A DNA stretch of 64,000 nucleotides from Vreelandella olivaria (GTDB taxonomy: Bacteria > Pseudomonadota > Gammaproteobacteria > Pseudomonadales > Halomonadaceae): NCBI RefSeq assembly GCF_023507745.1, contig NZ_JALPZO010000073.1, forward strand, positions 1-64,000, given 5' to 3'. The position numbers were made by a program, and so were the translations under genes. Of this stretch, positions 5,244 through 26,249 are shown piece after piece (the stretch's first letter is position 1; every line of letters begins with the position of its first letter). Under the pieces are notes generated by a model. That model ran no database searches. It was given only the letters and a program-made list of their open reading frames with translations, and was not told the DNA's origin.

Positions 5244-5999
5244 TTATCCTGCGTGAGACGCCGCATCAACGTGAAAGCGGCTGCCTAACCGATAACGCGT
5301 CGAGGGATGGAGAAATTGAACATAGGTGACAACGCGTGAGGCGCTCCATGTGCGTCGCATCAGGGCTAAGCATGGCTCATTGGGTTCAATGTCGAGAGCT
5401 TCGGCATCCTCTTCTGAGGGCAAAAGTGCATCGACGATATGCTCGATTTCGTCAACAGGAATAGTATTAAGTAGATAGCGCGAGGGCTGTAGCGTGTCGT
5501 TGAACTGCTGATGAATAAAGTCAGGTGCCATGGCTGGTGACACATAGCGCTCCTCAAGCTGAACTGCGAGACCCTCTTCATAATGCACGCAGCGTAGGTG
5601 ATACACCGAACTGCCGGTCGGTAGCTCAAGGGCTGAGGCAATGGTAAAGGGGGCGGCCACCCGCCCGAGTTCAAGCACCTCGCAGTGATAACGGTGGCCA
5701 CGTAGAAGGATTTCGTCCGCAATATTGGCGATTTGTAGCAAGTTGGAGTGGGGCTTGCGCTCAGCAATGAAAGTACCTACGCCGCTGGTGCGCTCTAGAT
5801 AGCCTTCATTAGTGAGTTCCCTTAGTGCCCGGTTAATCGTCATGCGTGACATACCGAGTTCATGCACTAACTGGTTTTCAGATGGAATCATGTCACCCGG
5901 TTTCCAATATCCAGAAGCCGTGCGATCAAGCACAAACTGCTTGGCCTGCAAATAAAGTGCCTTTGGTGTGGCCGCGCTATCGGTGTCGGTTTTTTTCAT
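5244..5999 (-). CDS. hutC: Histidine utilisation repressor HutC (GntR family)
   Basis: This is a 251-residue GntR/HutC-family regulator. The N-terminal winged helix-turn-helix reads PGDMIPSENQLVHELGMSR and TINRALRELTNEGYLER, and the C-terminal UTRA ligand-binding domain runs from about residue 95 to 245. HutC proteins repress hut genes and are released by urocanate. Here hutC is the last gene of the minus-strand operon that starts with the ABC transporter, 36 bases after the PhyH gene, and it has a GGAG ribosome-binding site. The TGTATATACA palindromes at five promoters in this region are the likely operators, including the one upstream of its own operon, so autoregulation is expected. Assignment rests on family pattern plus context. 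Confidence 0.92.
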   Translation of the reverse strand: MKKTDTDSAATPKALYLQAKQFVLDRTASGYWKPGDMIPSENQLVHELGMSRMTINRALRELTNEGYLERTSGVGTFIAERKPHSNLLQIANIADEILLRGHRYHCEVLELGRVAAPFTIASALELPTGSSVYHLRCVHYEEGLAVQLEERYVSPAMAPDFIHQQFNDTLQPSRYLLNTIPVDEIEHIVDALLPSEEDAEALDIEPNEPCLALMRRTWSASRVVTYVQFLHPSTRYRLGSRFHVDAASHAG

Positions 6000-8921: not shown

Positions 8922-8934
8922 GGCTGGCTCCTGT

Positions 8935-10253: not shown

Positions 10254-10278
10254 TGGCAGAATCCCTATAGGGGAGAGG

Positions 10279-10300: not shown

Positions 10301-10329
10301 AACTGCCGTCCGAGCACGTTAGTTAGCGT

Positions 10330-11163
10330 TTAGATTTCGGGTTCAAAGTCTTCGATGGGAACTTCCATCGGCTGGCCGAACCACTTGGTCTGCAGCTCTT
10401 CAAAACTGCCATCCTCATGCATCGATAAAATGATTTCGTTGATCGCATCAATCAGTGAAGCGGATGCTTCATCGTTGCGTGCCATATAGCCGAAGTAAGC
10501 GGGCTGGCCGAAGGGGGGATGTACGACTTCAAACATCGGACGCTGGGTCGCCGTATAAGCGATATTGGGAAGTGAGTTAGCGACGGCATCAATTCGCCCA
10601 GCAGCCAGGTCGGCGTAGGTTTGGCTGTAATCGACATACTCGGTGATGGCAGGGGGTTCGGGTAATTCGGCAGCAAAGGCCTGTAGCTGCTCAAGTTGAG
10701 CAGTGCCTCGCCCGCCGCCGGCGGTTTTGCCGGAGAGGTCTTCAGGGGTTTGTATTGAGTCATCGTCAGCGCGTTTTAATAGCGCTACGGTGGCCTCAGC
10801 AATAGGTAACGTGAAGTTGTAGCGTAGTTTTCGTTCACGGGTAATCATGGCCGGGCCTGCCACGAAATCATAGTTTCCAGCTTCAAGGCCGGGTAGTACG
10901 CTTGGCCAGGGGAGATCGATCCAATTGATACTCACCTCAAGCTCTTCCCCGATACGTTCCATTAGCTCTAAGTTGAGGCCGCTCTGCTGGCCAGCTTCTA
11001 AATAGGCAAAAGGTGCGAAGTGGAACTCGGTGCCAATGTTGAGAACGCCGCGCTCCTTTACCTCTTCAAGCAAATCTGCATAAGCGGTACTCACCGCCAT
11101 TGATAGGCCAACGCCCAGCGTTAAAATACATAGTGGCTGCCTGAATGGATTGCATTTTTTCAT
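10330..11163 (-). CDS. Polar amino acid ABC transporter, periplasmic binding protein
   Basis: This is a 277-residue class 3 solute-binding protein. A Sec signal peptide ends near AYA (residues 27-29). The mature protein starts DLLEEVKERGVLNIGTEFHF and carries typical ligand-site elements such as PFAYLEAGQQSGLNLELMERI and AGRIDAVANS. It is the first gene of a seven-gene minus-strand operon (binding protein, two permeases, ATPase, aminotransferase, PhyH oxygenase, hutC). A HutC-type palindrome lies 117 bases upstream of the start. The substrate is likely histidine or an imidazole amino or keto acid, by context only. Confidence 0.9.
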   Translation of the reverse strand: MKKCNPFRQPLCILTLGVGLSMAVSTAYADLLEEVKERGVLNIGTEFHFAPFAYLEAGQQSGLNLELMERIGEELEVSINWIDLPWPSVLPGLEAGNYDFVAGPAMITRERKLRYNFTLPIAEATVALLKRADDDSIQTPEDLSGKTAGGGRGTAQLEQLQAFAAELPEPPAITEYVDYSQTYADLAAGRIDAVANSLPNIAYTATQRPMFEVVHPPFGQPAYFGYMARNDEASASLIDAINEIILSMHEDGSFEELQTKWFGQPMEVPIEDFEPEI

Positions 11164-11279
11164 GGGGTAATGACTCCATAGAACAGTGGGAGGAACTGCT
11201 TTTTTTAATAACGTTTGCTGAGATGCCGATTGGATGTATCGGCTTTATTTTGCAAGTGGCGTGCCAGAAAACATTTACC

Positions 11280-11289
11280 TGTATATACA
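11280..11289. promoter_or_regulatory. Predicted HutC operator of the ABC-transporter/hutC operon
   Basis: A perfect TGTATATACA palindrome lies upstream of the binding-protein gene. Identical or near-identical copies lie at the four other hut promoters in this window. Known hut operators of pseudomonads have the form TGTA-N2-TACA, which this matches. Confidence 0.72.
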
Positions 11290-11391
11290 TAGTGGTTTTG
11301 CACGCTAATACGTTAATTCGCGAAAAATACCGCGCACTGTTCGGGTGCATGCAACCATCTGTTTGTTCAGCCCCGTTTGGCTCTACGTTTC

Positions 11392-12780
11392 TCAGCTGAG
11401 TAGCTTGCCGGGGTTAAGCGTGCCATTAGGGTCCAGGGCGTTTTTGAGCGTGCGCATCACCTCCAGAGTGTCGGGGTGGACACTGTGATGAAGAAAGTCA
11501 CGTTTAAGCAGGCCAATGCCGTGCTCGGCAGAAATTGAGCCGCCGCGCTCGCCGACTAACTGGTAGACCTCGGCCTCGATGGCATGGCGAGTTTGTGGAG
11601 TGTCTTCGGTCAGAGAATGGCCGTCCACCGTGAGGTGGAGGTTGCTGTCGCCGATATGCCCGAAATTGACAATCCGCACGCCCATCCAGTGCTTGTGAAG
11701 CATCGCTTCTGCAGCCTCAACAAAATTGCCAATATCGGGAATCGACAAGCTGATATCGAAGTTGATGGGGGCTAGTTTGATGGGAAATTCGGCGGTTGCC
11801 TCACGAATCGCCCATAGTTCGCGGGCCTGGGTGGTGCTGCTTGCCAATACCGCATCTGCAACTTCACCGGCTGACAACGCTTCCTCAAGTGCCAGCTCCA
11901 GATGGTTTGCACTCCCCTCCGCTTCACACAGCACGTAGAGTGGGTAGTTGGTCGGTAGGGGCGGCTGTTTGGTTTGCCAACCGCAGCTCATGGTGTAGAA
12001 GTCCTGCCACATCACTTCGTACGCCTCGAGTGCCAGCTTGGCCCGGCGCAGGCGGTGCATAAATGAGACCGCTGAAGGATAATCCGGCAGGGCGCATAGC
12101 AGCGTGTGAGTATCACTCTGAGGAGGCGATAAGCGTAGCACGGCGCGGGTGATAACACCCAATGTTCCCTCAGCGCCGATAAAGCAGTGTTTGAGGTCAT
12201 AGCCGGTATTGTTTTTAATCATGCTGTTCATTAAATCCAACACCCTGCCATCGGCTAACACCACTTCAATGCCGAGCACCTGATCACGGGTCATACCGTG
12301 ACGAATCACACCATGGCCGCCTGCATTCGTGGAAAGGGTGCCGCCAATGTGGCAGGAACCCCGTGCCCCGAAATCCACCGGGTAGCGAAACCCTGCCTCC
12401 TCCGCAGCATCCTGGACGGCCTGCAGCGTTGTTCCCGCCCGCACTGTTAAGGTAGCGGCGTCGCGGTCAACACTTTCCACTCCACTGAGCCGGGCTAATG
12501 ACAGTGCAATGCTGTCTGCGCTGGGGACGGCCCCGCCCGCCAGCCCCGTCATGCCGCCCTGGGGAACAACGGTGCGGCGATGCTCGTTGCAAAAGCGCAG
12601 TACTCTGGAAACCTCTTGGGTTGTTGCGGGGCGAACTAACGCCAGTGGCCGACAGGGGGCGTGGCCGGTCCAGTCGCTCTGGCAGGATTCAGGAATCGCC
12701 TCACCTAGCAGCACGCTATCGCCAAAGGTATCTACCAGCGCCGCCAGAAAGGCTGTGTCCTCGATGCTGACGGAGTTCAT
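11392..12780 (-). CDS. FAD-binding 2-hydroxyacid oxidase/dehydrogenase (GlcD / D-lactate dehydrogenase type)
   Basis: This is a 462-residue VAO/PCMH-fold flavoprotein. The FAD-binding half includes VVPQGGMTGLAGGAVP and GGTLSTNAGGHGVIRHG. The C-terminal half has NFGHIGDSNLHL and SAEHGIGLLKRDF, typical of GlcD and D-lactate/D-2-hydroxyglutarate dehydrogenases. It oxidises a D-2-hydroxyacid to the 2-oxoacid and passes electrons to quinone or a cytochrome. It follows hutH after 54 bases with a GGGAGA ribosome-binding site, so it should be co-induced with histidine breakdown. Imidazole-lactate is the natural guess for the substrate; plain glycolate or lactate cannot be excluded. Confidence 0.85.
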   Translation of the reverse strand: MNSVSIEDTAFLAALVDTFGDSVLLGEAIPESCQSDWTGHAPCRPLALVRPATTQEVSRVLRFCNEHRRTVVPQGGMTGLAGGAVPSADSIALSLARLSGVESVDRDAATLTVRAGTTLQAVQDAAEEAGFRYPVDFGARGSCHIGGTLSTNAGGHGVIRHGMTRDQVLGIEVVLADGRVLDLMNSMIKNNTGYDLKHCFIGAEGTLGVITRAVLRLSPPQSDTHTLLCALPDYPSAVSFMHRLRRAKLALEAYEVMWQDFYTMSCGWQTKQPPLPTNYPLYVLCEAEGSANHLELALEEALSAGEVADAVLASSTTQARELWAIREATAEFPIKLAPINFDISLSIPDIGNFVEAAEAMLHKHWMGVRIVNFGHIGDSNLHLTVDGHSLTEDTPQTRHAIEAEVYQLVGERGGSISAEHGIGLLKRDFLHHSVHPDTLEVMRTLKNALDPNGTLNPGKLLS

Positions 12781-12834: not shown

Positions 12835-14367
12835 TCACGCCTCGGTATACAGGCGTGGACGGGGCAGTAGTGTGTCGAAAATGGCATCATCGACAAAGCG
12901 CTGTGCCGCTACCAGATCAGGAGCGAAGTAGCGGTCGTGGTCATACTGCTTCACGTCGCGGCGGATGAGTGCCAACGCCTCTTCCAGCGCAGGAGAACTC
13001 GTCATGGGGCGGTGAAACTCAATGCCCTGGGCTGCTGCCAGTAGCTCAATGGCGACCACGGCGCTGGAGTTGAACGCCATATCGGCCAGGCGCCTTGCCG
13101 CAAAGGTGGCCATTGAGACGTGGTCCTCCTGGTTAGCGGAGGTCGGCAAGCTATCCACCGAGGCTGGATGGGCCAGGGTCTTATTCTCCGAGGCGAGTGC
13201 AGCAGCACTCACCTGGGCGATCATAAAGCCGGAATTGATACCGCTATCCTCGACCAAAAAGGCGGGCAGCCCTGATAGGGTTGGATCTACCAGTTGGGCT
13301 ATCCGGCGTTCGGAAAGCGCACCGATTTCGGCAATCACCAGTGCCAATACATCGGCAGCCATGGCAATCGGCTCTGCATGAAAATTGCCGCCGGAGAGCA
13401 CATCGCCATTGTCGAAGACCAGGGGATTATCAGAGACTGCATTTGCTTCGCGCAGGAATACCCCTGCCGCGAAACGTAAATGATCCAGACAGGCTCCCAT
13501 CACTTGAGGCTGGCAGCGTAGCGAATAGGGGTCCTGCACGCGGGAGCAGTCGAGATGAGATTCTCGGATACGGCTGCCAGCGAGTAATTCCCGGTATAAG
13601 GTGGCCACATCACATTGGCCTGGGTGGCCGCGTACCGCCTGAATACGCTCGTCAAACGGGGTGTCCGAGCCTTTCAGTGCATCTACAGAGAGACTGCCAG
13701 CGACCACGGCTGCGGTGAATAGCTTCTCGGTGGCGAACAGCCCGCGTAGCGCTAGCGCGGTGGAAACCTGGGTACCGTTGATCAGCGCAAGCCCCTCTTT
13801 AGGGGCTAGCGTTAACGGCTCAAGGCCTGCCCGTGCAAGCCCTTCAATAGCGGGCATCTCTTGACCCTGATGCCGCATGCGCCCTTCGCCAAGCAGTGTG
13901 GCGGCCAAATGGGCCAGCGGTGCTAGATCCCCGGAGGCGCCCACCGAGCCTTTAGCCGGAATGCACGGAAATACCCGAGCGTTGTACAGCGCTAGCAACG
14001 CTTCGATGATCAGCCAGCGCACGCCGGAGTGGCCCCGTGCCAGTGATGCTGCTTTGAGCGCCATTATCAAGCCCACCGTGGCGTCATCCAGATCATCACC
14101 CACCCCAGTACTGTGTGACAGTACCAGGTTGCGCTGAAGCTCGGTGAGCGAGGCCCGTGGGATTGAGGTTTGAGCCAGCACGCCAAAGCCCGTATTGATA
14201 CCGTAGACGGTTCTCCCGCTATCCAGAATGGTATTCACGGTAGCCTGGGCGGCGGTGACTCGATCGCGACTGGCATGGTCGAGTTCAAGCGTGGGACTTA
14301 GTTCATAAAGTTCGCGCAGGGTATCTAGGGTGATGTGACCGGGAGAGATGCATAGTATGGATGACAT
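12835..14367 (-). CDS. hutH: Histidine ammonia-lyase HutH (MIO-containing)
   Basis: This is a 510-residue canonical histidine ammonia-lyase, which converts L-histidine to urocanate and ammonia as a cytoplasmic homotetramer. The MIO-forming tripeptide Ala144-Ser145-Gly146 is intact in [15 protein letters not shown]. Also present are the catalytic tyrosine in VYGINTGFG (residues 54-62), [12 protein letters not shown], and [10 protein letters not shown]. The ATG follows AGAGGTAACC. It is the first gene of a two-gene minus-strand operon with the FAD oxidase, and a TGTATATACA operator lies 63 bases upstream. It is clearly distinct from the second HAL-family gene at 22643, which lacks the MIO tripeptide. 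Confidence 0.96.
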
Positions 14368-14724: not shown

Positions 14725-15696
14725 ATGTCAACTTCAGCAATGACGATACCGTTAGTGGATATGCAGGGCGTGCGTGACGGGGACTTTGAAAGTCTCGCCC
14801 GGGCTGGAAAAGCGATTCATGATGCCTGTACCCAGGTGGGCTTCTTTTACATCATCAATCATGGCTTACCCCAAGTGGTGATAGATGAGGCCATGCAGGC
14901 AGCACAGCGCTTTTTTGCCGAACCGCTGGAGCGCAAGGCCGAGGTAGCCGTTAATAAATGTCATCGCGGTTTTCACCGGCGGGGAGGTGCCACCATGTAT
15001 CAGGCAACCCGGCCGGATGAGAAGGAGTTCTATAGTTTTGGCCTGGATCTGGCGGAAGACGACCCTGCCGTGTTGGCGGGTGAGGCCCTGCGAGGGCCGA
15101 ACCAGTGGCCTGGGTTTATGCCGGAGTTTCAGCAGGCAATGGATCGCTACTTTCTTGAAGTCGGGCACTGTGGCGCCGATCTGCTACGCGCCATTGCGAT
15201 GAGCCTGGAGATTGATCCCGAGTTCTTTGCCGCTAAGTACACCAAACCGTTACAGCGCACCCAGGCAGTCTATTATCCCGTGCAGGCGGATGATCGGCCC
15301 GCAGACCAGTTTGGCGTCGCCCCGCATACCGATTATGGATGTGTTACGTTGCTCTACCAGGATGCTGTGGGTGGCTTGCAGGTGCGTGAGTTGGAGAGCG
15401 AGCGCTGGATTGACGCCCCTTTTATGGAAGGCTCACTGGTGGTCAATGTGGGTGATCTGCTGGCGCGATGGTCCAATGATCGCTTTCGATCCACCTTGCA
15501 TCGGGTGATTAATACCAGTGGGCGCGAACGTTACTCCATTGCTACCTTTTATGACCCCGACTATGGTGCTCGGGTCGACCCAGTTGATCTGGGGGTGGCG
15601 CCTGATCAGGCTGCTTACCCACCGGTGGCAGCGGGGGACTATATTCTTGGTCGCATTGATGCTTCGATGAGCTATCGCAAACAAGCCACGTCATGA
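14725..15696 (+). CDS. Isopenicillin-N-synthase-like Fe(II)/2-oxoglutarate dioxygenase
   Basis: This is a 323-residue member of the isopenicillin N synthase / plant 2-oxoglutarate dioxygenase family. The N-terminal DIOX_N part contains TQVGFFYIINHGLP. The iron triad is His201, Asp203 (APHTDYGCVTLL) and His259 (STLHRVIN), and the 2-oxoglutarate-binding Arg269 and Ser271 are in RERYS. It shares a unit with hutD, 10 bases downstream, under a HutC-type operator. This is the second oxygenase of this chemistry in the hut region, besides the PhyH gene. Oxidation or N-demethylation of an imidazole amino acid is plausible but unproven. A purely housekeeping role is unlikely, given the operator. Confidence 0.87.
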   Translation: MSTSAMTIPLVDMQGVRDGDFESLARAGKAIHDACTQVGFFYIINHGLPQVVIDEAMQAAQRFFAEPLERKAEVAVNKCHRGFHRRGGATMYQATRPDEKEFYSFGLDLAEDDPAVLAGEALRGPNQWPGFMPEFQQAMDRYFLEVGHCGADLLRAIAMSLEIDPEFFAAKYTKPLQRTQAVYYPVQADDRPADQFGVAPHTDYGCVTLLYQDAVGGLQVRELESERWIDAPFMEGSLVVNVGDLLARWSNDRFRSTLHRVINTSGRERYSIATFYDPDYGARVDPVDLGVAPDQAAYPPVAAGDYILGRIDASMSYRKQATS

Positions 15697-15706: not shown

Positions 15707-16327
15707 ATGAGCTTGCCAACCACGCTAAGGTTTGCCGAGCTGAACCCTGTTGCCTGGCGTAATGGCGGTGGTATCACCCGCGTGGTGGCTTGCCAGGTGG
15801 GCGCTGAGCCGCCGGGCTGGCGTATCTCTATCGCTGAGTTGGATAAGGCCGGGCCTTTTTCCGTTATTCCAGAGGTAACACGCCATTTTACGGTAATAGG
15901 CGACCAGCCGGTCACGCTGCTATTCAGTAAGCAATGCGCCGTTTTGGCACCCCATGAGAGTGTGACGTTTGATGGGGAGACCGCAGTGAGCTGCCTGTTA
16001 CCCAATGGGCCGAGTCGGGCGCTAAATGTTATGTACCAGCCTCAAAACTGGCAGGCCCGTGTGACTTGGTTAGTTGCTGGCGAGCCCTTTATGCGCAACC
16101 TTCATGCTGACACTCTCCTCTTCGCCATTGGCGGCCGTGCCTGGATGACTGATCACTTGTCGCATCCCTCAAGCTTACCGCTGCATAACGCTGCCCTGCA
16201 TATAGCAAGTGGCGATGCCTGGTATTGGCCTGGGGCAAGCCTTTCTAACGCTAGTGAAGCGCCGATCATGTTAGCGATAACGCCACATGCTCGGCTATGC
16301 AAAGTAGAACTACAGCCACGGGCTTGA
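15707..16327 (+). CDS. hutD: HutD-family protein
   Basis: This is a 206-residue HutD, a bicupin found only with hut genes. Recognisable parts are NPVAWRNGGGITRVVA at the N-terminus and GWRISIAELDKAGPFSVIP, a pattern typical of the family. HutD is thought to tune hut pathway flux by binding an intermediate such as formylglutamate or urocanate; it is not a pathway enzyme. It is coupled to the dioxygenase gene and converges on the YjiH-type gene with only 20 bases between the stops. Confidence 0.88.
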   Translation: MSLPTTLRFAELNPVAWRNGGGITRVVACQVGAEPPGWRISIAELDKAGPFSVIPEVTRHFTVIGDQPVTLLFSKQCAVLAPHESVTFDGETAVSCLLPNGPSRALNVMYQPQNWQARVTWLVAGEPFMRNLHADTLLFAIGGRAWMTDHLSHPSSLPLHNAALHIASGDAWYWPGASLSNASEAPIMLAITPHARLCKVELQPRA

Positions 16328-16346: not shown

Positions 16347-17651
16347 TTAGCCCGCTAGCCAGGCGGCAAAGTATCCCGCAGGGATCGCTAACGAAAGACT
16401 AAGGAAGGTCCGTATCAGCCAGATAAACACGATACGCCCCATAGAGAGAGGAATCGTGGTTGATAGAATGCAGGGGATCGATGCCGAAAAGAACAGTATC
16501 GACGATACCGAAATGACCCCGGTGGCAAAGCGCGCCGGTAGTGAGGCGTCCGCCATTAATAGCGCGGGCAGAAACATCTCGGCTAATCCCGAGGCTGCCG
16601 CTTGGGATAACTGCCGTGCCTCGTCGATACCGAACAGTGCGATCAAGGGGTAGAAAATCACCCCTATCCATTCAAATAGCGGGGTGTACTTGGCAAGCAG
16701 CAAGCCGAGTAAACCTACTGACAGGATTGAGGGCAGAATGCTCATGGTCATCAGCATGCCTTCTTTGAGGTTAATCATCACACTACGGCCCAGGCTGGGG
16801 GCTTGTTGAGCGGCGATTAGGCTCTCTTGCCACGCGGTGGAAAGTCGCTGGCCGCGCGCCACTGGCGCTTCCTCATAGGTCGATTCGTTATTCATTCTTG
16901 AAAGGGGCGGCAGGCGCACGGTAATGGCGGTAACAACAAAGGTGATCAACAGCGTTAACCAAAAATAGAGATTCCACATTGCCATCAGATCGAGCGTTTT
17001 GGCGATGACAATCATAAAAGTGGCAGAGACGGTGGAGAAACCGGTCGCGATGATGGCAGCTTCGCGAGCGGAGTATCGGCCAGCGCTATAGACCCGATTG
17101 GTGATCAGTAGGCCGATTGAGTAGCTACCTACGAATGATGCCACGGCGTCGATAGCTGAGCGCCCTGGAGTGCGCCAAAGCGGACGCATGAGTGGCTGAC
17201 AGATTACCCCAACCCCCTCCAGTAGCCCGTAGTTAATCAGCAGTGCCAGGAAGATGGCACCGATAGGAACAATGAGACCCACCGAAATCACCAACCTATC
17301 GAATAAGAACGGCAACATATCGGGTGTGTGCAGTGCTGCCGGGCCGATACCGGTCAATGCCAGAGTACCGCACAGCACCCCCATCCACTTGAGTACCGTG
17401 AACACGCGTTCGGTGCGACTGGCCCGCCAGCGTCCGGTGATCACTGGGTAGAGGGCTCCGGCGATAATGACTGCCATGGCGTAGTAGTTTACCGCGTCGC
17501 CCAGCAAGCGACGAGAGGCGCTTACCAAGTGATCGAGCAGAATCGTCGTTGTGCCATTGAGGGTGATGGGCACGAAAAACACCAATATTCCCAGCAGACT
17601 GGGGATGAATAGCTTAAAGAGCGTAGAGGGAGTCGCTTTGACAGCTGGCAT
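16347..17651 (-). CDS. YjiH-family (nucleoside-recognition/GATE domain) membrane protein
   Basis: This is a 434-residue integral membrane protein with about ten hydrophobic segments and two Gate-like repeats. One of these includes VGSYSIGLLITNRVYSAG and ATGFSTVSATFMIV. It follows hutF after 37 bases in the same transcription unit, so HutC control is expected. YjiH-type proteins are often seen beside hut genes, but I know of no proven function. A role in uptake or efflux of a pathway compound is the natural guess. The family call is firm and the function is open. Confidence 0.8.
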   Translation of the reverse strand: MPAVKATPSTLFKLFIPSLLGILVFFVPITLNGTTTILLDHLVSASRRLLGDAVNYYAMAVIIAGALYPVITGRWRASRTERVFTVLKWMGVLCGTLALTGIGPAALHTPDMLPFLFDRLVISVGLIVPIGAIFLALLINYGLLEGVGVICQPLMRPLWRTPGRSAIDAVASFVGSYSIGLLITNRVYSAGRYSAREAAIIATGFSTVSATFMIVIAKTLDLMAMWNLYFWLTLLITFVVTAITVRLPPLSRMNNESTYEEAPVARGQRLSTAWQESLIAAQQAPSLGRSVMINLKEGMLMTMSILPSILSVGLLGLLLAKYTPLFEWIGVIFYPLIALFGIDEARQLSQAAASGLAEMFLPALLMADASLPARFATGVISVSSILFFSASIPCILSTTIPLSMGRIVFIWLIRTFLSLSLAIPAGYFAAWLAG

Positions 17652-17688: not shown

Positions 17689-19053
17689 CTAATAACCCAT
17701 TTGACGGAACAGGCGGGCTAGTGCGGTGCGGTTGGCCTCGTCGAGCGCATGGCGGCGCTCCTGGATAACCCAGCGCCCAGCCACCATGACATCGCGTATC
17801 TGCTGTTTGGAACCACCAAACAGCCAGCGGCCCAGGCGGGTGTCAGGGGAGCTACTTCCCAGGTAAGGGTCACTGCCATCGAGTACGACAATGTCGGCGC
17901 GTCTACCGACTGCCAAGGCGCCGATGGGTTGACCTGAGGCTTGGGCTCCCCCGGCGAGGGAGCGGCGGTAAAGCCAGTCACCCACCGGGCGTATTTCACT
18001 ATCGTGAAGACAGTTGCGCTGCTGCGTGGCAAGTCGCTGGCCGTACTCCAGTAAGCGCAACTCCTCGACCACGTCTAACGAGACATGACTGTCAGAACCG
18101 ATGCCTAGTGCTCCCCCCTGGGCGGCATACTCGACGGCTCGGAACAGGCCATCGCCCAGATTGGCTTCGGTGGTCGGACAGAGTCCGGCAACGGCACCGC
18201 TGGAGGCGAGAGCCTTAACTTCGGTGTCATTGAGGTGGGTGGCGTGTATCAGGCACCATCGGTCATCCACTTCCATATTGTTTAGCAACCACTCCACTGG
18301 GCGTTGACCTGAATAGGCAAGGCTTTCCTCAACTTCGCGCTGCTGTTCAGCCACATGGATATGGCGTGGCCCAGCCGGGTTTGTCGCCAATACTTCCTGC
18401 ATCTCTTCCAGGGTTACGGCACGCAGTGAGTGGAAAGCCATTCCCAGTGCCTGGGTAGAGTGTTCAGTAAGAGGTGTTGCCAATCTCTCCAGCAGCCTCA
18501 GAAAATTCGGTACGGTGTGGATGAAACGACGCTGCCCTTTGCTGGGTGGCTGGCCGCCAAAACCACTGTGGGCGTAAAGCACGGGAAGGAGTGTCAGCGC
18601 AATGCCGCTCCGTTTTGCGGCGCCAGAAATAGCCCACGCCATTTCGGCGGGGTCGCTATAAGGCTCACCTGCGGTGTCGTGGTGCAGGTAGTGAAATTCG
18701 CTGACCTGGGTGTAACCACCTTTGAGCATCTCAACGTAAAGCGCCTGAGCAATAACGCCCACCTGTTCCGGTGTCAGGTGATCGACCAATCCGTACATAC
18801 GCTCCCGCCAGCTCCAAAAACTGTCTGGCTGAGTACTGCCGATTTCTGCTAAGCCTGCCATAGCGCGCTGAAAAGCGTGCGAATGCAGATTCGGCATACC
18901 CGGTAGTGCAGGTCCGGATAAGCGCGGGGCATCACCCGGTTCGCTGTCAGGTTGTACCGTCGTCAGTGTGCCGGTGGCATCGATTTCGAGCAGTACCTGT
19001 GACGCCCATCCGGTAGGCAGCAGGGCATGGTCAGCAAAATAGCGGTTTAGCAT
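17689..19053 (-). CDS. hutF: Formimidoylglutamate deiminase HutF
   Basis: This is a 454-residue amidohydrolase-superfamily enzyme that deiminates N-formimino-L-glutamate to N-formyl-L-glutamate and ammonia. The first metal motif is GMPNLHSHAFQRAMAGLAE. His in IHVAEQQREVEESL and the Asp in GIGSDSHVSLDVVEELR complete the zinc-site pattern of this family. The start at 19053 was chosen over an upstream in-frame start at 19122 because it follows a GGAG site and because the longer version would be translated across the operator. HutF marks the five-step histidine route, consistent with the HutG found at 25437. The YjiH gene is downstream. Confidence 0.95.
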   Translation of the reverse strand: MLNRYFADHALLPTGWASQVLLEIDATGTLTTVQPDSEPGDAPRLSGPALPGMPNLHSHAFQRAMAGLAEIGSTQPDSFWSWRERMYGLVDHLTPEQVGVIAQALYVEMLKGGYTQVSEFHYLHHDTAGEPYSDPAEMAWAISGAAKRSGIALTLLPVLYAHSGFGGQPPSKGQRRFIHTVPNFLRLLERLATPLTEHSTQALGMAFHSLRAVTLEEMQEVLATNPAGPRHIHVAEQQREVEESLAYSGQRPVEWLLNNMEVDDRWCLIHATHLNDTEVKALASSGAVAGLCPTTEANLGDGLFRAVEYAAQGGALGIGSDSHVSLDVVEELRLLEYGQRLATQQRNCLHDSEIRPVGDWLYRRSLAGGAQASGQPIGALAVGRRADIVVLDGSDPYLGSSSPDTRLGRWLFGGSKQQIRDVMVAGRWVIQERRHALDEANRTALARLFRQMGY

Positions 19054-19073
19054 GATAGCTCCAGGGTTATGAA

Positions 19074-19083
19074 TGTATATACA
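19074..19083. promoter_or_regulatory. Predicted HutC operator of hutF
   Basis: A perfect TGTATATACA palindrome lies 21 bases upstream of the hutF start. Its position between promoter and gene suits repression by HutC. Confidence 0.72.
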
Positions 19084-19238
19084 TATATCGAAGTCTGAGG
19101 GTCGGGTAAAGAGGGTGCCCAAGGTTATTTGAAATTGGCAATTATGGTGCGTATTAAGGCGCCATAACAGAGGATTGCACTTTATTGGTGAATACGGCTA
19201 AAAGAGATTTTAGGGCATTGCGAAGAAATGATTGTTGT

Positions 19239-19279: not shown

Positions 19280-20947
19280 ATGACCCTTTCACGTTATCGC
19301 GATGTCGAGATTCGGGCGCCTCATGGAACCGAGCTCTCCTGTAAGAGCTGGCTCACAGAGGCTCCTTTGCGCATGTTGATGAATAACCTTGACCCCGATG
19401 TAGCCGAGAATCCCAAAGAACTGGTGGTATATGGCGGGATTGGCCGTGCCGCTCGCAACTGGGAGTGTTTCGATACCATCGTTGAGACCCTCAAGCGCTT
19501 AGAGGATAACCAGTCACTGCTGATCCAGTCCGGCAAACCCGTGGGCGTCTTTGAGACCCACAAGGATGCGCCAAGGGTGTTAATCGCTAACTCAAACCTG
19601 GTGCCCGCCTGGGGAAATTGGGGGCACTTTAATAAGTTGGATAAGCAGGGCTTGATGATGTATGGCCAGATGACCGCTGGCTCATGGATCTATATCGGTT
19701 CCCAGGGCATCGTCCAGGGCACCTATGAAACCTTTGTGGAGGCTGGGCGCCAGCACTACGACGGCAAGCTGACGGGGCGCTGGATTCTTACCGCCGGCCT
19801 GGGCGGCATGGGTGGCGCACAGCCACTGGCGGCAACATTAGCCGGGGCCTGTAGCCTTAACATCGAGTGTCAGCAGAGTCGTATCGATATGCGACTGCGC
19901 ACCCGCTATGTTGATGAACAGGCGAGCGATCTCGACGATGCTCTGGCGCGCCTTGAGCGCTACACCTCTGAAGGTAAGGCGGTTTCGATTGCCCTGCAAG
20001 GCAATGCCGCCGAGATTTTGCCAGCGCTGATTGAGCGTGGCATTAAGCCCGATATGGTAACCGACCAGACCAGTGCCCATGACCCGCTACATGGATACCT
20101 GCCCGCAGGCTGGACATGGGAGGAGTATGTGGAACGTGGTAAACACGAGCCGGAAACGGTGGTAAAAGCGGCCAAGCGCTCTATGGCGGTGCATGTGCAG
20201 GCCATGCTCGATTTCCAGGCGATGGGGGTGCCGACCTTCGATTACGGCAATAATATTCGCCAGATGGCTCAGGAGGAGGGCGTTACTAACGCTTTCGACT
20301 TCCCGGGCTTTGTGCCTGCTTACATTCGTCCCCTGTTTTGCCAGGGCATCGGTCCATTCCGCTGGGTGGCACTCTCAGGTGATCCGGAAGATATCTACAA
20401 AACGGACCAGAAGGTCAAAGAACTCATCCCCGATGACCCACATCTACACAACTGGTTGGATATGGCCAGGGAGCGCATCAGCTTCCAGGGTTTGCCAGCT
20501 CGAATCTGCTGGGTGGGGTTGAAGGACCGGGCTCGGTTGGGGCAGGCGTTCAACGCTATGGTGGCCAGTGGTGAACTTAAAGCGCCGATTGTCATCGGTC
20601 GCGATCACCTGGACTCTGGCTCGGTGGCTAGCCCCAACCGTGAGACCGAGTCGATGATGGATGGCTCGGATGCTGTATCCGACTGGCCGCTACTCAACGC
20701 GCTTCTCAATACCGCCGGTGGAGCTACCTGGGTGTCGCTGCACCACGGCGGTGGCGTTGGCATGGGTTACTCACAGCATGCTGGTGTGGTGATCGTCGCT
20801 GATGGCACACAGGATGCCCATGCCCGCCTGGGTCGTGTGCTACATAACGACCCTGCAACCGGAGTGATGCGACACGCCGACGCTGGTTATGACATCGCCA
20901 GGCGCAGTGCCGCCGAGCAGAAACTTGACTTACCGATGGTCAAGTAA
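19280..20947 (+). CDS. hutU: Urocanate hydratase HutU
   Basis: This is a 555-residue urocanase, the full family length. It hydrates urocanate to 4-imidazolone-5-propionate using tightly bound NAD. Family blocks are near-perfect: [53 protein letters not shown] and the active-site cysteine in PARICWVGL. One loop at residues 110-117 (AWGNWGHF) differs from the HWATWEHF I remember in pseudomonad enzymes. The ATG follows TAGGAG. It leads the operon hutU, BCCT transporter, MIO-less lyase, hutI, hutG, with the HutC operator at its promoter. Both lyases in this window should feed it. Confidence 0.96.
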
Positions 20948-21057: not shown

Positions 21058-22650
21058 ATGCCACTAAACGACAGGAAACAGATAAGGCGAGGCGTCTTTA
21101 TACCGGCCTTCATGATTATTACTCTGGCCGTTATTGTTGGTTTAGTTAACAACGAACTACTTGTTAGCGTTGCTAGGCAACTATTTTATCTCTCGCTTTC
21201 CGACTTCGGTTGGTTATACCAATTACTGGCCATTTCGACTTTAGGTGTCACAGCATTTATATTTTTTTCTAAAGCAGGCAATGTTCGATTAGGGGGGGCT
21301 AACGCAAAACCAACATTTTCTCTGGCCACCACCTTTGCTATGGCGTTGACTGGTGGCATTGCAACGGGAGTGGTTACCTACTCGGTGAATGAGCCAATCA
21401 TCTACCTGGGTAATGTCTATGGCGAGATCGGTAATCAATCATTTGAGCCCAACAGTGGCGAAGCAGCGATCTTTGCGTTGGCTAGGAGCTTTCATAATTG
21501 GAGTTTTATTCCCTATGCCATGTACTCCATTGTTGGATTGATGATTGGGTATATGCACTTTAATCGTAAAGAACGCTTTTCGATATCTTCAACACTTGCT
21601 CCGTTATTAGGTAATAAAGAGCAAAACCTTGCCGTTCGAGCGGTAGTCGACATTATCTCAATCCTTGCCATTGCACTGGGACTTGCATCGTCTTTAGGGG
21701 CTGGCTTGGCGCTGATTAGTTCTGGCATTGAAGCCGAGTACGGTATCGCTTCAAGCCCTACCACTTGGCTGATACTAACATTGGTTATCTCTGCCATCTT
21801 TATTACCTCCGCGGTGTCTGGTCTTAAGCGAGGCATCCGGTTCCTGTCATCAGTCAATGCTTATATTTTTTATGCGTTTGTAGTCATTCTGCTGATGATT
21901 GGCCCAGTGAATTATATCCTTAGCTTGTCGGTGACTAGCTTGGGCTACTGGTTCGATAACTTCTTCCTTTGGTCCTTCGACACCAAAGAGTCTGGAGGTG
22001 AGGCGTTGGTCACTTGGTGGACCATGTACGATTGGTCGATCTGGATCGCCTATGCGCCGTTGATGGGCCTGTTTCTGGCGCGCATTTCCTATGGTAGAAC
22101 GTTGCGCGAATTTTTGGTGATTAACTGGATTCTGCCTTCAGTGTTCGGAATCGTTTGGTTTGCTATATGGGGCGGTTCGGCGATCAAGTGGCAAATGGAT
22201 GGCATTCTGGATCTGGTTAGTGTGGTGACAGAAAATGGCGCTGTTTCGGGTCTCTGGGGCTTCCTGCAGCACTTGCCAATGTCTGCCTTGCTGATCCCGC
22301 TTGCCATTGTGACACTGATTATCTCCTTTTCCACTGCTGCGGACTCAATGTCATCGACCATTGCCACTATCTGTACTAAAAACATGACGGCGAAAGAGGA
22401 GGCTCCCCGTAAGCAGAAGATCCTTTGGGGGCTGTCAATCGCTATTATCGCCTATGTGATGGTGGCCTTTGGTGGCGGTGCCCAGGGTGTAGATGGCATC
22501 AAGTTCCTGGCGGCAGCTGGTGGTTTTATTGTGCTGTTTCTATTTGCTTTGATTGTGGCTTCTGCGGTGAAAGTTTTTATTATGGATGGCGCTAATAAAC
22601 CCTCATCAGAGCAGGCCCCTGCTGTACGCGTTAAGGATGCCTATGAGTGA
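21058..22650 (+). CDS. BCCT-family betaine/carnitine/choline-type transporter
   Basis: This is a 530-residue carrier of the BCCT family with about 12 membrane segments. The signature helix (residues 320-352) reads WWTMYDWSIWIAYAPLMGLF and continues LARISYGRTLREF. BCCT carriers import quaternary ammonium compounds, usually with sodium or protons. The third-helix motif is GGIATGVVTYSVNEP, which differs from the GMGIGLMFYG-type sequence of BetP. One tryptophan of the aromatic box seems replaced by isoleucine and another by tyrosine. It sits inside the hut operon and overlaps the MIO-less lyase gene by eight bases, so transporter and lyase probably share a substrate such as hercynine or ergothioneine. 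It has a strong ribosome-binding site (GGAGGC). Confidence 0.9.
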   Translation: MPLNDRKQIRRGVFIPAFMIITLAVIVGLVNNELLVSVARQLFYLSLSDFGWLYQLLAISTLGVTAFIFFSKAGNVRLGGANAKPTFSLATTFAMALTGGIATGVVTYSVNEPIIYLGNVYGEIGNQSFEPNSGEAAIFALARSFHNWSFIPYAMYSIVGLMIGYMHFNRKERFSISSTLAPLLGNKEQNLAVRAVVDIISILAIALGLASSLGAGLALISSGIEAEYGIASSPTTWLILTLVISAIFITSAVSGLKRGIRFLSSVNAYIFYAFVVILLMIGPVNYILSLSVTSLGYWFDNFFLWSFDTKESGGEALVTWWTMYDWSIWIAYAPLMGLFLARISYGRTLREFLVINWILPSVFGIVWFAIWGGSAIKWQMDGILDLVSVVTENGAVSGLWGFLQHLPMSALLIPLAIVTLIISFSTAADSMSSTIATICTKNMTAKEEAPRKQKILWGLSIAIIAYVMVAFGGGAQGVDGIKFLAAAGGFIVLFLFALIVASAVKVFIMDGANKPSSEQAPAVRVKDAYE

Positions 22651-24184
22651 GTTGCCTCGCTACGTTGAGATCGGCAATACACCTCCCGCTTGGCGGGAGG
22701 TGGTCAAGGTTGCTCGTTACCAGTATCGCCTATCGCTGTCGTCGCCGGTATGGGAAAGGGTAAGCGCCGCTCGGCAGGTCGTTGAGAGAATCGCCGCTTC
22801 GAGCGTGCCCCATTACGGTATTAATACTGGTTTGGGAGCCCTGTGTGATGTGGTGCTAAAGCAAGATGAGCTGCGAAGGCTTTCGCACCACACCTTGATG
22901 AGCCATGCCTGTGGTGTTGGTATCCCGCTGCGAACGGAGCAAGTCCGAGCCATTATGTGCAGCGCGGTGGTTAACTACAGCCACGGTTACTCCGGTATTA
23001 GCCCAGGCGTGGTGGAGGGGCTGATCAGACTGTTGAATGAGCAGGTCACACCGATCGTACCCTCGCGGGGTTCGGTGGGTTACCTCACCCATATGGCCCA
23101 TATTGGACTGGTGTTGATTGGCCACGGCGACGTTGAATTTCGTGGCCAACGCATGCCTGCCAAGCAAGCGTTGGATGCTATCGGTATGTTGCCGCTAACC
23201 CTTGGGCCCAAGGATGGCCTGAGCTTGGTTAACGGTACCCCTGCGATGACGGGATTGGCCTGTCTGGCGCTTGACGATACTGCCCGGCTGGCCGCTTGGG
23301 CAGATATCATTGGCGCTATGAGTTTTGAGACATTAGGCGGTCAGTTGAAGGCATTTATGGCCGAGGTGACGGTTCTCAAACGCCACTCGGGTGTTCAGCA
23401 AACGGGGGATAACCTGCGTCGTTTGCTCGAAGGCAGTTTATATCTGGCGCACCATCAAGGGCAGCGGTTACAGGATGCGCTGAGCCTGCGCTCCATGCCC
23501 CAGGTGCATGGTGCCTGTCGTGACCAGTTTGACCATGCCGCTAGGCAGATTGAGAAAGAGCTACATTCGACCACCGATAACCCGTTAGTGGTGCCGGTGG
23601 GAGATAGTTACCAGATTGTGTCCCAAGCCAACCCTCACGGTGCTTCGGTGGCGATGGCTTGCGACCTGCTGGCAATCGCTGTTTGTGAATGGAGTTCGAT
23701 CTCCGAGCGGCGTGCTTACCGGCTGGTGACACCTCAGGCGAACCAACTGCCGCCTTTCCTGACCACTGAAGGCGGTGTTAAATCCGGCATGATGATCGCT
23801 CACTATTCGGCGGCCTCCTTGGTGGCGGACAACAAGCGTCTGGCACAGCCCGCTGTTACCGATAATTTTATCACCTCGGGGCTGCAGGAAGACCATCTCA
23901 GTCTCGGCGAAAGCGCTGCTTTGAAGCTGGATCAAGCTCTCGACAATGCCTTCTACGTTCTTGCTATTGAATATCTGTTGGCCGCCCAGGCCTTTGATTT
24001 AATCGGCGGTGAGGATTTCGCCCCTGGGACTTTGCTGGCCTGGAAATCACTACGCGAGGTTCTTCCTGTCTACCAGGAAGAGCACGCCCTGCACTTAGAT
24101 ATACAGGCGGTCTACGAGCGGCTACGGAATGACTTGGTACTGGATAGATTTCTGCCTATCGCCCCCCATTTACTATCGTGCTAG
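22643..24184 (+). CDS. MIO-less HAL-family lyase, candidate hercynine/ergothioneine trimethylammonia-lyase
   Basis: This is a 513-residue homolog of histidine ammonia-lyase. It keeps the tyrosine motif HYGINTGLG (residues 57-65), [24 protein letters not shown] and GLQEDHLSL. It lacks exactly the three residues Ala-Ser-Gly that form the MIO cofactor: RGSVG (142-146) runs straight into YLTHMAH (147-153), where HutH has [21 protein letters not shown] is also changed to SQANPHG. An MIO-free HAL fold is, as I recall, the hallmark of ergothionase, which eliminates trimethylamine from ergothioneine by acid-base chemistry. The start at 22643 follows AAGG and overlaps the transporter gene by eight bases. 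With HutU upstream and HutI downstream the product should be urocanate, which favours hercynine; ergothioneine is the alternative. Confidence 0.8.
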
Positions 24185-24231: not shown

Positions 24232-25440
24232 ATGAAACAACTTTGGCACCACTGCCATGCGGTGACGATGGCGGGCGGTCGCTACGCCGTCGTGCACGAT
24301 GTAGCGCTAATCATTGAAGAGGGGAGTATCGCCTGGATCGGCCCGGAAGCGGAGCTGGACCGTGATACTGCTTTTGACCAAGTACACGATTTGGACGGGG
24401 GCTGGGTGACGCCGGGCTTGATTGACTGTCATACTCATCTGGTATTTGGCGGCGACCGTAGCGGCGAGTTTGAGATGCGCCTTGAGGGCGTGAGCTATAG
24501 CGAGATCGCCAAACGGGGGGGCGGTATTGTCAGCAGTGTACGGGCAACCCGCGAAGCGAGTTTTGATCAGCTCCTTGCCAGCGCCGAGTCCCGCGCCCGG
24601 TTACTGCTACGGGAAGGTGTCACCACGCTTGAAATCAAGTCTGGCTATGGGCTTGACCTGGACAGCGAACGCAAAATGTTGAGAGTGGCCCGGGCACTGG
24701 GAGAGAAGCTGCCGGTTGAGGTACACACCACCTGCCTTGCCGCCCATGCACTGCCCCCCGAATACCGCGATCATAGTGATGCCTATATTGATCTGGTGTG
24801 TGAAAGTATCCTGCCCACCCTGGCTCAGGAGGGGCTCGTTGATGCGGTGGACGGTTTCTGCGAAGGAATCGCCTTTTCCGTTGAGCAGATGCGGCGTGTG
24901 TTTACCACCGCCAGGCAGTTGGGCTTACCGGTTAAGCTGCACGCTGAGCAGTTATCGCATCTTGGCGGTTGCCAGCTAGCTGCCGAGTTCGGCGCACTCT
25001 CGGCTGACCATGTCGAATATGCCGATGAAGCTGATGCTGCGGCCATGGCGAGCAGCCATACTGCCGCCGTGTTATTGCCGGGCGCCTTTCTGACGCTACG
25101 CGAAAGCCGATTGCCACCGATTGAGGCGTTTCGTGCCCAGGGGGTGACGATGGCGCTGGCCAGCGATCTTAACCCAGGGACGTCACCTGTCTTATCGTTA
25201 CGGTTAATGATGAATCTAGCCTGTACGCTGTTCCGGCTTACCCCCGAAGAGGCGCTGGCTGGTGTCACCCTGAATGCGGCTAAGGCATTGGGTATTGACG
25301 CACGTTGCGGTTCACTTGAGGTGGGTAAGCAGGCAGATGCCGTTGTATGGAACATTTCCGGGCCGGCGGAGCTCAGTTACTGGCTGGGCGGTCAGTTACC
25401 CGTTAAGGTTTTTAAAGCAGGTAAAGAGGTAGAGGCATGA
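24232..25440 (+). CDS. hutI: Imidazolonepropionase HutI
   Basis: This 402-residue amidohydrolase opens the imidazolone ring to give N-formimino-L-glutamate. The metal motif [20 protein letters not shown] and the family block [14 protein letters not shown] are present, as are the histidines in [12 protein letters not shown] and the Asp in [12 protein letters not shown]. The ATG at 24232 follows an AGGAGG site, giving the normal family length; an upstream in-frame start would only add unrelated residues. It overlaps hutG by four bases. It is cytoplasmic and needs zinc or iron. Confidence 0.96.
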
Positions 25441-26249
25441 TCGACAGTTACCAGCTCACGCAGGGTGATACACCACTGCTGATTTCAATGCCCCACGCAG
25501 GCACTGCGCTAACACCGGAAGTAGAGGTGAGGCTTACCCCGCAAGCGCTTAGTCTCGCTGACACCGATTGGCATATTCCCAAGCTTTACGATTTTGCCGC
25601 CGAGCTTGGAGCAAGCCGGATTGAGGCGCGCTATTCGCGTTATGTTATTGATCTTAATCGACCTGAGGATGATGCCCCGCTCTACGTGGGGGCGACTACC
25701 GGGCTATTCCCCGATGTCGACTTTGATGGTCGTGGGTTGTTTCGCGATGATCAAGCGCCGGACCAGGAGGCGCAGCGTTGGGCAAAGGAGCATGTTTGGC
25801 GGCCTTATCATGCAGCGCTGGCAGGTGAGCTGGCGCGACTCCAGGCGCGTTTTGGCTATGTACTGCTATTCGATGCACACTCAATCCGGTCGCGGATACC
25901 GCGGCTGTTTAACGATCAATTGCCAGATATTAATCTAGGCACGTTTGAAGAGCAGAGCTGTGACCCTGAGCTAAGTAAGACCTTGCTGGCACGCTGTGAG
26001 GCACAATCGCGGTTTACGCATGTGATTAACGGTCGCTTCAAGGGCGGACATATCACTCGCAGCTATGGAGACCCGGCTAACCATATCCATGCGGTACAGC
26101 TTGAACTCTCCCAGCGCACCTATATGAACGAGCCGAAGGATGATACGCCGGTCTTTGCCTATCGCCCGGATCGAGCTGATGAGGTGCGCCCACTGCTTCG
26201 CAGTCTGCTTGAAACGATGCTGCAGTGGGGTGAAGATCGTTATGGATAG
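25437..26249 (+). CDS. hutG: N-formylglutamate deformylase HutG
   Basis: This is a 270-residue N-formylglutamate amidohydrolase, which releases glutamate and formate. It is the second HutG type, unrelated to the arginase-like formiminoglutamase. Features include [44 protein letters not shown] and the C-terminal [20 protein letters not shown] block. Its ATG overlaps the hutI stop (ATGA), and it ends the hutU operon. With hutF it completes the five-step pathway. Confidence 0.95.

What the first reader, a model, noticed from the sequence alone, without database searches (positions are those of the whole stretch)
22643..24184. HAL-family lyase with the MIO tripeptide cleanly deleted, inside a hut operon
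Seen: the protein aligns with HutH over its whole length, but between GSVG and the next conserved block exactly three residues (Ala-Ser-Gly) are missing, so the usual electrophilic cofactor cannot form. The catalytic tyrosine motif and QEDH block stay. Known, from memory: ergothionase is a HAL-fold enzyme of about 510 residues that works without MIO and expels trimethylamine. Inference: this enzyme eliminates trimethylamine from hercynine (giving urocanate directly for HutU) or from ergothioneine. A hercynine-to-glutamate pathway built into the hut regulon would be a little-described system.
Basis: partly seen in the sequence, partly recalled or inferred. Interest (0 to 1): 0.88.

Follow-up and report, generated by a model that had tools for sequence, protein, structure and literature searches.

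The report
Predicted MIO-free hercynine lyase, hut operon
A relative of the enzyme that starts histidine breakdown has lost its usual chemical tool and sits beside a betaine-type importer, so it most likely strips trimethylamine from histidine betaine (hercynine) and feeds the rest into the ordinary histidine pathway; this has not been tested at the bench.

Summary
Window 22643-24184 (+) encodes a 513-aa HAL-fold lyase lacking the MIO tripeptide ([11 protein letters not shown]), in a run hutU - BCCT - lyase - hutI - hutG, with a normal MIO-bearing HutH in the same cluster. It falls in its own clade (100/100), apart from HutH and ergothionase. All 43 aligned members lack MIO, keep Y53, H83, N195, R283 and E414 (P. 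putida HutH numbering) and have Leu for Y280. In 43 of 45 loci a transporter lies directly upstream: BCCT 26, betaine-type ABC HutXWV 11, polar-amino-acid ABC 6. In 146 genomes the BCCT orthologue occurs in exactly the 8 with the lyase gene. HutU is true urocanate hydratase; no thiourocanate hydratase over cut-off and no EgtD match were found; the ergothionase lysine is absent. Best reading: hercynine trimethylamine-lyase giving urocanate. The clade holds a Sinorhizobium meliloti lyase behind a betaine ABC transporter and, by gene order, Pseudomonas HutH1, reported as dispensable on histidine. Function is inferred. I found no description in the library searched, but key papers were not held.

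The parts
22643..24184 (+). MIO-free HAL-family lyase (called HALx here), 513 aa; predicted hercynine trimethylamine-lyase
   Evidence: (PF00221, 529 bits)
23069..23092 (+). codons for GSVGYLTH: the place of the missing MIO tripeptide
22814..22816 (+). codon Tyr58 (= HutH Tyr53), kept
23480..23491 (+). codons Leu280-Ser-Leu-Arg283: Tyr280 of HutH replaced by Leu, Arg283 kept
23633..23635 (+). codon Pro331 in SQANPHG (HutH Phe329 position)
23885..23896 (+). codons QEDH 415-418 (Glu416 = HutH Glu414), kept
21058..22650 (+). BCCT-family transporter, overlaps the lyase gene by 8 bases; predicted hercynine importer
   Evidence: (PF02028, 388 bits)
19280..20947 (+). HutU, urocanate hydratase (TIGR01228, 978.8 bits; below the thiourocanate hydratase cut-off)
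24232..25440 (+). HutI, imidazolonepropionase (ORF also open from a GTG at 24178)
   Evidence: 489.5 bits, cut-off 298
25437..26249 (+). HutG-like N-formylglutamate deformylase (named by recall from the translation and gene order; no family search)
17689..19122 (-). HutF, formimidoylglutamate deiminase
   Evidence: 642 bits, cut-off 413
12835..14367 (-). canonical MIO-bearing HutH ([14 protein letters not shown])
   Evidence: (681.8 bits, cut-off 539)
15707..16327 (+). HutD-like protein (name from recall; no family search)
16347..17651 (-). Gate-domain (YjiH-like by recall) membrane protein, recurrent in these loci
5244..5999 (-). GntR/UTRA (HutC-type) regulator at the far end of the cluster

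Best explanation
The protein is a MIO-independent trimethylamine-lyase for hercynine (N-alpha,N-alpha,N-alpha-trimethyl-L-histidine, histidine betaine). Hercynine enters through the BCCT transporter encoded just upstream. In HutH the electrophilic MIO group turns a poor leaving group (the alpha-amino group) into a good one; hercynine already carries a good leaving group, trimethylamine, so MIO is not needed. A base (Tyr58 or Glu416) takes the beta-proton, Arg283 holds the carboxylate, the retained HutH-type residues (His88, Asn197, Gln415, Glu416) hold the imidazole, and the space freed by loss of MIO, Tyr280 and Phe329 takes the trimethylammonium group. The products are trimethylamine and urocanate, and urocanate is finished by HutU, HutI, HutF and HutG to glutamate. 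Shown: the missing tripeptide, the conserved residues, the clade, the gene order, and the coupling to transporters. Inferred: substrate, products, residue roles and transporter substrate.
For: MIO absent, HutH-type substrate residues kept, Tyr280 to Leu and Phe329 to Pro (36) or Ala (7) in the 43 aligned members. Own clade with 100/100 support (100/99 without the MIO columns). A transporter directly upstream on the same strand in 43 of 45 loci: BCCT 26, HutXWV-type 11, polar-amino-acid ABC 6 (Pfam class tested on one binding protein of each ABC type, the rest by similarity). With E up to 1e-180 the BCCT orthologue occurs in exactly the 8 of 146 genomes (own included) with the lyase gene, one of them frameshifted. 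In G019 and G028 BCCT is missing and only a 3' piece of the lyase gene is left while the hut genes and HutH remain. The BCCT keeps aromatic-box positions but has its own pocket letters in 25 of 25. HutU passes as urocanate hydratase and stays under the thiourocanate cut-offs in the window and in 8 further lyase loci tested. No thiourocanate hydratase over cut-off and no EgtD match in the genome, so hercynine would have to be imported. [quoted passage not shown]
Against: No activity data. Six of 45 loci have a polar-amino-acid ABC transporter instead of a betaine-type one, and two (L061, L094) have no transporter directly upstream. Four loci (L054, L060, L092, L094) show no hut gene in the stretch read. 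A review says that hutXWV of SBW25 also takes part in histidine uptake, and an S. [quoted passage not shown] I saw no gene for using trimethylamine near the operon and did not search the genome for one. In the two absence searches none of the 14 control genomes scored over the cut-off, so they lack a positive control. The AlphaFold model is weak just at the active-site loops (pLDDT about 73 at 141-150 and 51 at 411-420) and is a monomer, whereas HAL active sites are recalled to be built from three subunits.
Confidence: 0.77

Rival explanations
1. It is an ergothionase: it removes trimethylamine from ergothioneine (or its sulfonate), giving thiourocanate.
For: Same fold, no MIO, Leu at the Tyr280 position in both groups; the fold matches 6s7j_A at TM 0.87. 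The order of HALx, ergothionase and HutH in the tree is open, so a common MIO-free origin is not excluded.
Against: Separate clades, each 100/100. Different deletion (three residues against one). The lysine in 5 of 6 ergothionase-type rows is Tyr in 43 of 43 HALx (and Val 20, Tyr 4 in HutH). Asn195 (43 of 43) and Gln413 (42 of 43) are kept in HALx but lost in all 6 ergothionase-type rows. No thiourocanate hydratase over cut-off in the genome. Salinicola corii carries both proteins in one cluster.
Confidence: 0.07
2. It acts on another methylated or modified histidine (N-alpha-dimethylhistidine, a ring N-methylhistidine betaine, or a similar compound), still giving a urocanate.
For: The operon and imidazole-type residues point to a histidine derivative, but sequence alone cannot fix the number of methyl groups; six loci pair it with an amino-acid-type ABC transporter.
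Against: Without MIO a non-quaternary amine is a poor leaving group (general chemistry). Two unrelated transporter families classed as betaine transporters stand beside it in 37 of 45 loci. HutU in the 8 further loci tested is the ordinary urocanate enzyme.
Confidence: 0.1
3. It is an inactive or regulatory partner of HutH (a MIO-less subunit of mixed tetramers).
For: HutH is the next gene downstream in 17 of 45 loci, and HAL active sites are recalled to be shared between subunits.
Against: The residues recalled as catalytic are kept in 43 of 43, but for Tyr280 and Phe329; purifying selection; in 28 of 45 loci HutH is not the next gene; in G019 and G028 it is broken where the transporter is missing, while HutH stays.
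Confidence: 0.05
4. It is a plain histidine ammonia-lyase that works without MIO.
For: Two of 10 further members tested exceed at least one NCBIfam HutH cut-off.
Against: MIO is the electrophile that HutH needs (established); the window has a canonical HutH; SBW25 hutH1, the inferred relative, is not needed for growth on histidine.
Confidence: 0.01

Closest known systems
Histidine ammonia-lyase HutH (P. putida 1b8f/1gkj)
   Same: Whole-length homology (36% to P. putida HutH, 38% to the window's HutH), same fold (TM 0.90), same Tyr53, His83, Asn195, Arg283 and Glu414 positions, same gene cluster.
   Different: No Ala-Ser-Gly, hence no MIO; Tyr280 to Leu; Phe329 to Pro/Ala; separate clade; the window protein is under both HutH cut-offs.
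Ergothionase (Treponema denticola 6s7j)
   Same: MIO-free HAL fold with Tyr53, Leu at 280, Arg283 and Glu414 positions; would share the trimethylamine-elimination chemistry.
   Different: Deletion of another length; lysine of IQKTF absent (Tyr); Asn195 and Gln413 kept; separate 100/100 clade; HutU instead of thiourocanate hydratase.
Pseudomonas fluorescens SBW25 hutTu-hutXWV-hutH1 module (PMC8871633, passages)
   Different: Transporter is a HutXWV-type ABC system instead of BCCT. SBW25 itself was not read here; the identity of hutH1 is inferred from gene order, and the HutTu label from position.
S. meliloti pSymB lyase behind the betaine-type ABC transporter (recalled as hutXWV-hutH2)
   Same: [13 protein letters not shown], no MIO, 46% identity to the window protein, betaine-type transporter directly upstream.
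   Different: ABC transporter, not BCCT. Annotated as histidine ammonia-lyase. Read in strain Ak57, not 1021.
BetP-type BCCT betaine transporters
   Same: BCCT family (PF02028); Trp189, Tyr197 and Trp374 positions kept and Trp194 still aromatic.
   Different: Under all five NCBIfam BCCT cut-offs listed; Tyr370 to Asp and Trp373 to Ile in 25 of 25.

Membership tests
Histidine ammonia-lyase (HutH) | Ala-Ser-Gly that forms MIO | tested here: not met
   absent in 43 of 43 HALx rows (window protein included), present in 24 of 24 HutH rows
Histidine ammonia-lyase (HutH) | NCBIfam cut-offs TIGR01225 539.15 and NF006871 524 | tested here: not met
   496.8 and 508.4 bits. Against this test's value: of 10 further members L119 passes both and L092 one
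Histidine ammonia-lyase (HutH) | membership of the HutH clade | tested here: not met
   HALx and HutH are separate sides of branches with 100/100 and 97/93 support
Ergothionase | MIO-free HAL fold | tested here: met
Ergothionase | lysine in IQKTF (residue 383 in my count of 6s7j; recalled as catalytic in the 2019 structure paper, not held) | tested here: not met
   Tyr in 43 of 43 HALx; Lys in 5 of 6 ergothionase-type rows
Ergothionase | membership of the ergothionase clade | tested here: not met
   outside the 100/100 clade of 6 rows, of which only the Treponema one is characterised. Whether the two clades are sisters is open: 93/78 with the MIO columns, p-AU 0.407 without
Ergothionase | thiourocanate hydratase in the genome | tested here: not met
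   only HutU, 678.7 bits against cut-off 930; no control genome over the cut-off
Ergothionase | releases trimethylamine and thiourocanate from ergothioneine | not testable with these tools
   needs an assay
Aromatic amino acid lyase family PF00221 | Pfam gathering score | tested here: met
   529.2 bits, cut-off 27.3
BCCT transporter family PF02028 | Pfam gathering score | tested here: met
   388.3 bits, cut-off 27
Glycine betaine BCCT (NF047988) | curated cut-off 650 bits | tested here: not met
   324.5 bits
Hercynine trimethylamine-lyase (proposed) | urocanate and trimethylamine from hercynine | not testable with these tools
   needs an assay

The most novel reading that the evidence does not exclude
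A widespread MIO-free branch of the histidase family in Pseudomonadota, often annotated as HutH (including Pseudomonas HutH1 and the S. meliloti lyase behind HutXWV), is a hercynine trimethylamine-lyase. With BCCT, HutXWV or amino-acid ABC importers it makes a second entry into the hut pathway, histidine betaine to glutamate plus trimethylamine, and HutXWV is at root a histidine-betaine importer.
Probability: 0.63. Interest if true: 0.83.

Novelty: new variant of a known kind. Interest (0 to 1): 0.75.

Why it matters
It would give hercynine, the precursor of ergothioneine, a catabolic route in soil, plant-associated and halophilic bacteria, and a further bacterial source of trimethylamine. It would explain why some Pseudomonas hut loci carry a second histidase gene that is dispensable on histidine next to a betaine-class transporter, and why an S. 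meliloti histidine transporter is also involved in betaine uptake. It shows that standard annotation can call MIO-free proteins histidine ammonia-lyase. It also gives another MIO-free HAL-fold lineage in which to study how elimination chemistry works once the cofactor is gone.

Tried and rejected
Ergothionase membership was considered first and rejected on clade, residues and pathway genes. An independent, second loss of MIO in this clade was hoped for but not shown: with the MIO columns the tree joins HALx and ergothionase at 93/78; without them holding the two together costs 0.13 log units (p-AU 0.407) and HALx with HutH has 67/23 support. Fold comparison does not discriminate: 1gkj TM 0.90, 6s7j_A TM 0.87.

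The motif scan for GSVGYL[TSA]H needed cleaning. It gave 4 of 369 gammaproteobacterial and 18 of 398 Pseudomonadota genomes; five hits (G377, G500; G673, G764, G731) showed no lyase at the place and are false, leaving 2 of 369 and 15 of 398, the own genome included in both. The reversed control pattern rang in 1 and 3 genomes. The motif misses GSAGYL variants seen in rhizobia. In the scan of named genomes 29 loci came back, of which three (L068, L070, L071) are MIO-bearing HutH. Of 876 plasmid records with a match, six HALx loci were read. One of the 45 tabulated lyase loci (L044) has a homologue of a sulfate-exporter-type gene, so its rarity is only weak evidence against a sulfur substrate. 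For the trees, 55 of 83 collected rows were used; 22 of 43 HALx and 6 of 24 HutH rows were left out.

Paper searches in the held library: 'ergothionase' 21 papers; hercynine with urocanate and trimethylamine, 0; hercynine/lyase/catabolism, 174 papers, 25 listed; 'hercynine' from 2012, 135 papers, 40 listed; S. meliloti hut terms, 81 papers, 20 listed, 1 paper; hutH1/hutXWV terms, 3 papers; histidine betaine/catabolism/hutH, 106 papers, 15 listed, 7 papers, none with hercynine lyase, degradation or catabolism as a phrase. None of the listings or passages I saw describes a hercynine lyase. The 2019 ergothionase structure paper, the 2007 SBW25 hut paper, a 2012 hut review and a 2020 HutC paper were not held; I did not try to fetch the paper on the S. 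meliloti transporter. Of papers that were held I saw only passages found by terms.
Full report
WHAT IS THERE. Window 22643-24184 (+) encodes a 513-residue protein of the aromatic amino acid lyase family (PF00221, 529 bits). Where HutH has [14 protein letters not shown], it has [11 protein letters not shown]: three residues fewer and no Ala-Ser-Gly. The window also holds a canonical HutH at 12835-14367 (-) that keeps the tripeptide and passes both HutH cut-offs, while this protein passes neither. These two are the only family members found in the genome. The gene is the third of five in a compact run hutU (19280), BCCT transporter (21058), this lyase, hutI and hutG, and its start codon overlaps the BCCT stop by 8 bases.

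THE FAMILY. One scan of named genomes gave 29 loci, 26 of them with this kind of protein: Halomonadaceae (Halomonas, Vreelandella, Billgrantia, Kushneria, Salinicola), Zobellella, Oceanimonas, Pseudomonas, Corticimicrobacter and one gammaproteobacterial bin. Six loci read from plasmid records added Erwinia, Burkholderia, Aminobacter, Rhizobium and Sinorhizobium. A motif scan found it in 15 of 398 Pseudomonadota genomes after three false hits were removed. In an alignment of 83 HAL-family sequences, near-copies included, 43 of 43 members lack the tripeptide. All 43 keep the positions of HutH Tyr53, His83, Asn195, Gln277, Arg283 and Glu414, and all 43 have Leu for Tyr280. Phe329 is Pro in 36 and Ala in 7. 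The roles of these HutH residues are recalled from the HutH literature, except that 1gkj, 1eb4 and 1gk2 are listed as mutants of Tyr280 and Phe329.

NOT HutH, NOT ERGOTHIONASE. A maximum-likelihood tree of 55 rows puts HALx (21 rows, 100/100), ergothionase-type proteins (6 rows, 100/100) and HutH (18 rows, 97/93) on separate branches. Leaving out the MIO columns and the Tyr280 column keeps the three groups apart, but their order stays open, so one or two losses of MIO are both possible. The ergothionase-type rows differ from HALx in the length of the deletion (one residue), in a lysine (5 of 6) where HALx has Tyr (43 of 43), and in having lost Asn195 and Gln413. Only the Treponema row of these six is a characterised ergothionase (6s7j); the other five were labelled by similarity. 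The lysine lies in the stretch that I recall as catalytic in ergothionase; that paper was not held.

THE TRANSPORTER LINK. In 45 lyase loci (near relatives and the window included) a transporter gene lies directly upstream on the same strand in 43: BCCT in 26, a HutXWV-type ABC system in 11, and a polar-amino-acid-type ABC system in 6; L061 and L094 have none. The substrate-binding protein of the second type matches OpuAC (tested on L096) and that of the third SBP_bac_3 (tested on L095); the others were assigned by similarity to these. Among 146 genomes (relatives and own) the BCCT orthologue (E up to 1e-180) is present in 8, and these are exactly the 8 with the lyase gene, including G045, where it is frameshifted. 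G019 and G028 have no BCCT and only a 3' fragment of the lyase gene; a 217-aa gene and a Gate-domain transporter stand in their place (in G019 the former is flavin-reductase-like), while hutU, hutI, hutG, hutF and hutH are present at full length. Transporter and lyase thus behave as one module, separable from histidine use. The BCCT scores under all five NCBIfam BCCT cut-offs listed and has a pocket of its own: against BetP, Trp189, Tyr197 and Trp374 are kept, Trp194 is Tyr, Tyr370 is Asp, Trp373 is Ile and Trp377 is Tyr in 25 of 25 (BetP residue numbers and roles recalled).

WHY HERCYNINE. (a) The product must be something that hut can use: HutU is the ordinary urocanate hydratase in the window and in 8 further lyase loci tested, and the genome has no thiourocanate hydratase over cut-off. 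(b) Without MIO the leaving group must already be good, as a quaternary amine is; ergothionase is described as a trimethylamine lyase that lacks MIO (passages of PMC13405746). (c) The importer is of betaine class in 37 of 45 loci. (d) The genome has no EgtD match, so hercynine would be taken up, not made. In (a) and (d) none of the 14 control genomes scored over the cut-off, so these absences have no positive control. (e) Synechococcus sp. PCC 7002 is reported to hold histidine betaine (abstract start of PMC3826126 in the listing), so a natural source exists. Steps (a)-(d) rest on sequence and gene context; turnover itself is inferred.

LINK TO KNOWN PUZZLES. A review states that P. [quoted passage not shown] aeruginosa; it also says that hutXWV takes part in histidine uptake, which my reading must allow for (passages of PMC8871633). 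Loci L119, L120, L121, L122 and L131 show just this order, and the lyase in the hutH1 position is MIO-free. In Sinorhizobium meliloti pSymB (strain Ak57) a lyase annotated as histidine ammonia-lyase, [13 protein letters not shown], follows a proline/glycine-betaine ABC transporter. A transporter of S. [quoted passage not shown] that it is this one, and that the lyase is called hutH2, is recalled (the name hutH2 appears in PMC3410850, without the locus). At least one NCBIfam HutH cut-off is passed by 2 of 10 further MIO-free members tested (L119 both, L092 one), which can explain the annotation.

STRUCTURE. AlphaFold2 on 31 sequences gives mean pLDDT 89.5 and pTM 0.91, with weak loops just around the MIO position and QEDH. 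Foldseek ranks P. putida HutH first (TM 0.90), with 6s7j_A at 0.87. This confirms the fold and does not decide the substrate.

VERDICT. Most likely function: hercynine trimethylamine-lyase (0.77). It is a new variant of a known kind: chemistry like that of ergothionase, a separate clade, another substrate, and the product feeding the ordinary hut pathway. I found no account of it in the papers searched, but several key papers were not held, so prior description cannot be ruled out.

Noticed in passing
L039 6510-8045 (-), also L058 13999-15534 (+): Salinicola corii carries an ergothionase-like protein (best PDB match 6s7j, GSLGAADLAQ) directly 3' of the hut/HALx cluster, followed by ornithine-cyclodeaminase-like, PhnD-like and ABC genes.
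   Followed up: partly
L097, L132, L133: Ergothionase-like genes on Rhizobium, Polaromonas and Paracoccus plasmids lie near genes annotated as sulfate exporter (L097, L133) or YeiH (L132), and in L097 and L132 also near ornithine-cyclodeaminase and PhnD-like genes: a possible ergothioneine-use cluster.
   Followed up: partly
window 5244-12780 (-): Beside HutH lie a UTRA regulator, a PhyH-type dioxygenase, a class I/II aminotransferase, amino-acid-type ABC transporter genes (named from the translations) and an FAD-linked oxidase: perhaps a side route for histidine or imidazole-lactate type compounds.
   Followed up: no
window 14725-15696 (+): A 2OG-Fe(II) oxygenase between hutH and hutD, kept in the two relatives with broken HALx too, so probably tied to the hut cluster rather than to HALx.
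   Followed up: partly
L062 / L040: Halomonas olivaria TYRC17: hutF, hutU, HALx, hutI and hutG are each split by frame breaks over the whole cluster; sequencing errors or decay.
   Followed up: no
L041 7209-9252 (-), L042 8191-10235 (+): A 217-aa gene (flavin-reductase-like in L041; not scanned in L042) and a Gate-domain-type transporter stand in place of BCCT and the 5' part of HALx in two genomes.
   Followed up: partly
L082-L085, L087-L089: A further lyase clade (QDAYTLR; MIO-bearing GTVGASGDLTPLAH read in L082, L083, L087 and L088) of unknown role in the same genus.
   Followed up: no
plasmid collection: 206 Klebsiella plasmid records hold a distant HAL-family match; what it is was not looked at.
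   Followed up: no
L134, S. meliloti 1021 pSymA: An ergothionase-like protein, 36% identical to the Treponema enzyme by tblastn, so S. meliloti may hold both kinds.
   Followed up: partly
PMC12772324, passages: A P. aeruginosa paper calls PA5093 hutG; I recall PA5093 as annotated as a histidine/phenylalanine ammonia-lyase next to an ABC transporter. No P. aeruginosa sequence was read here.
   Followed up: no
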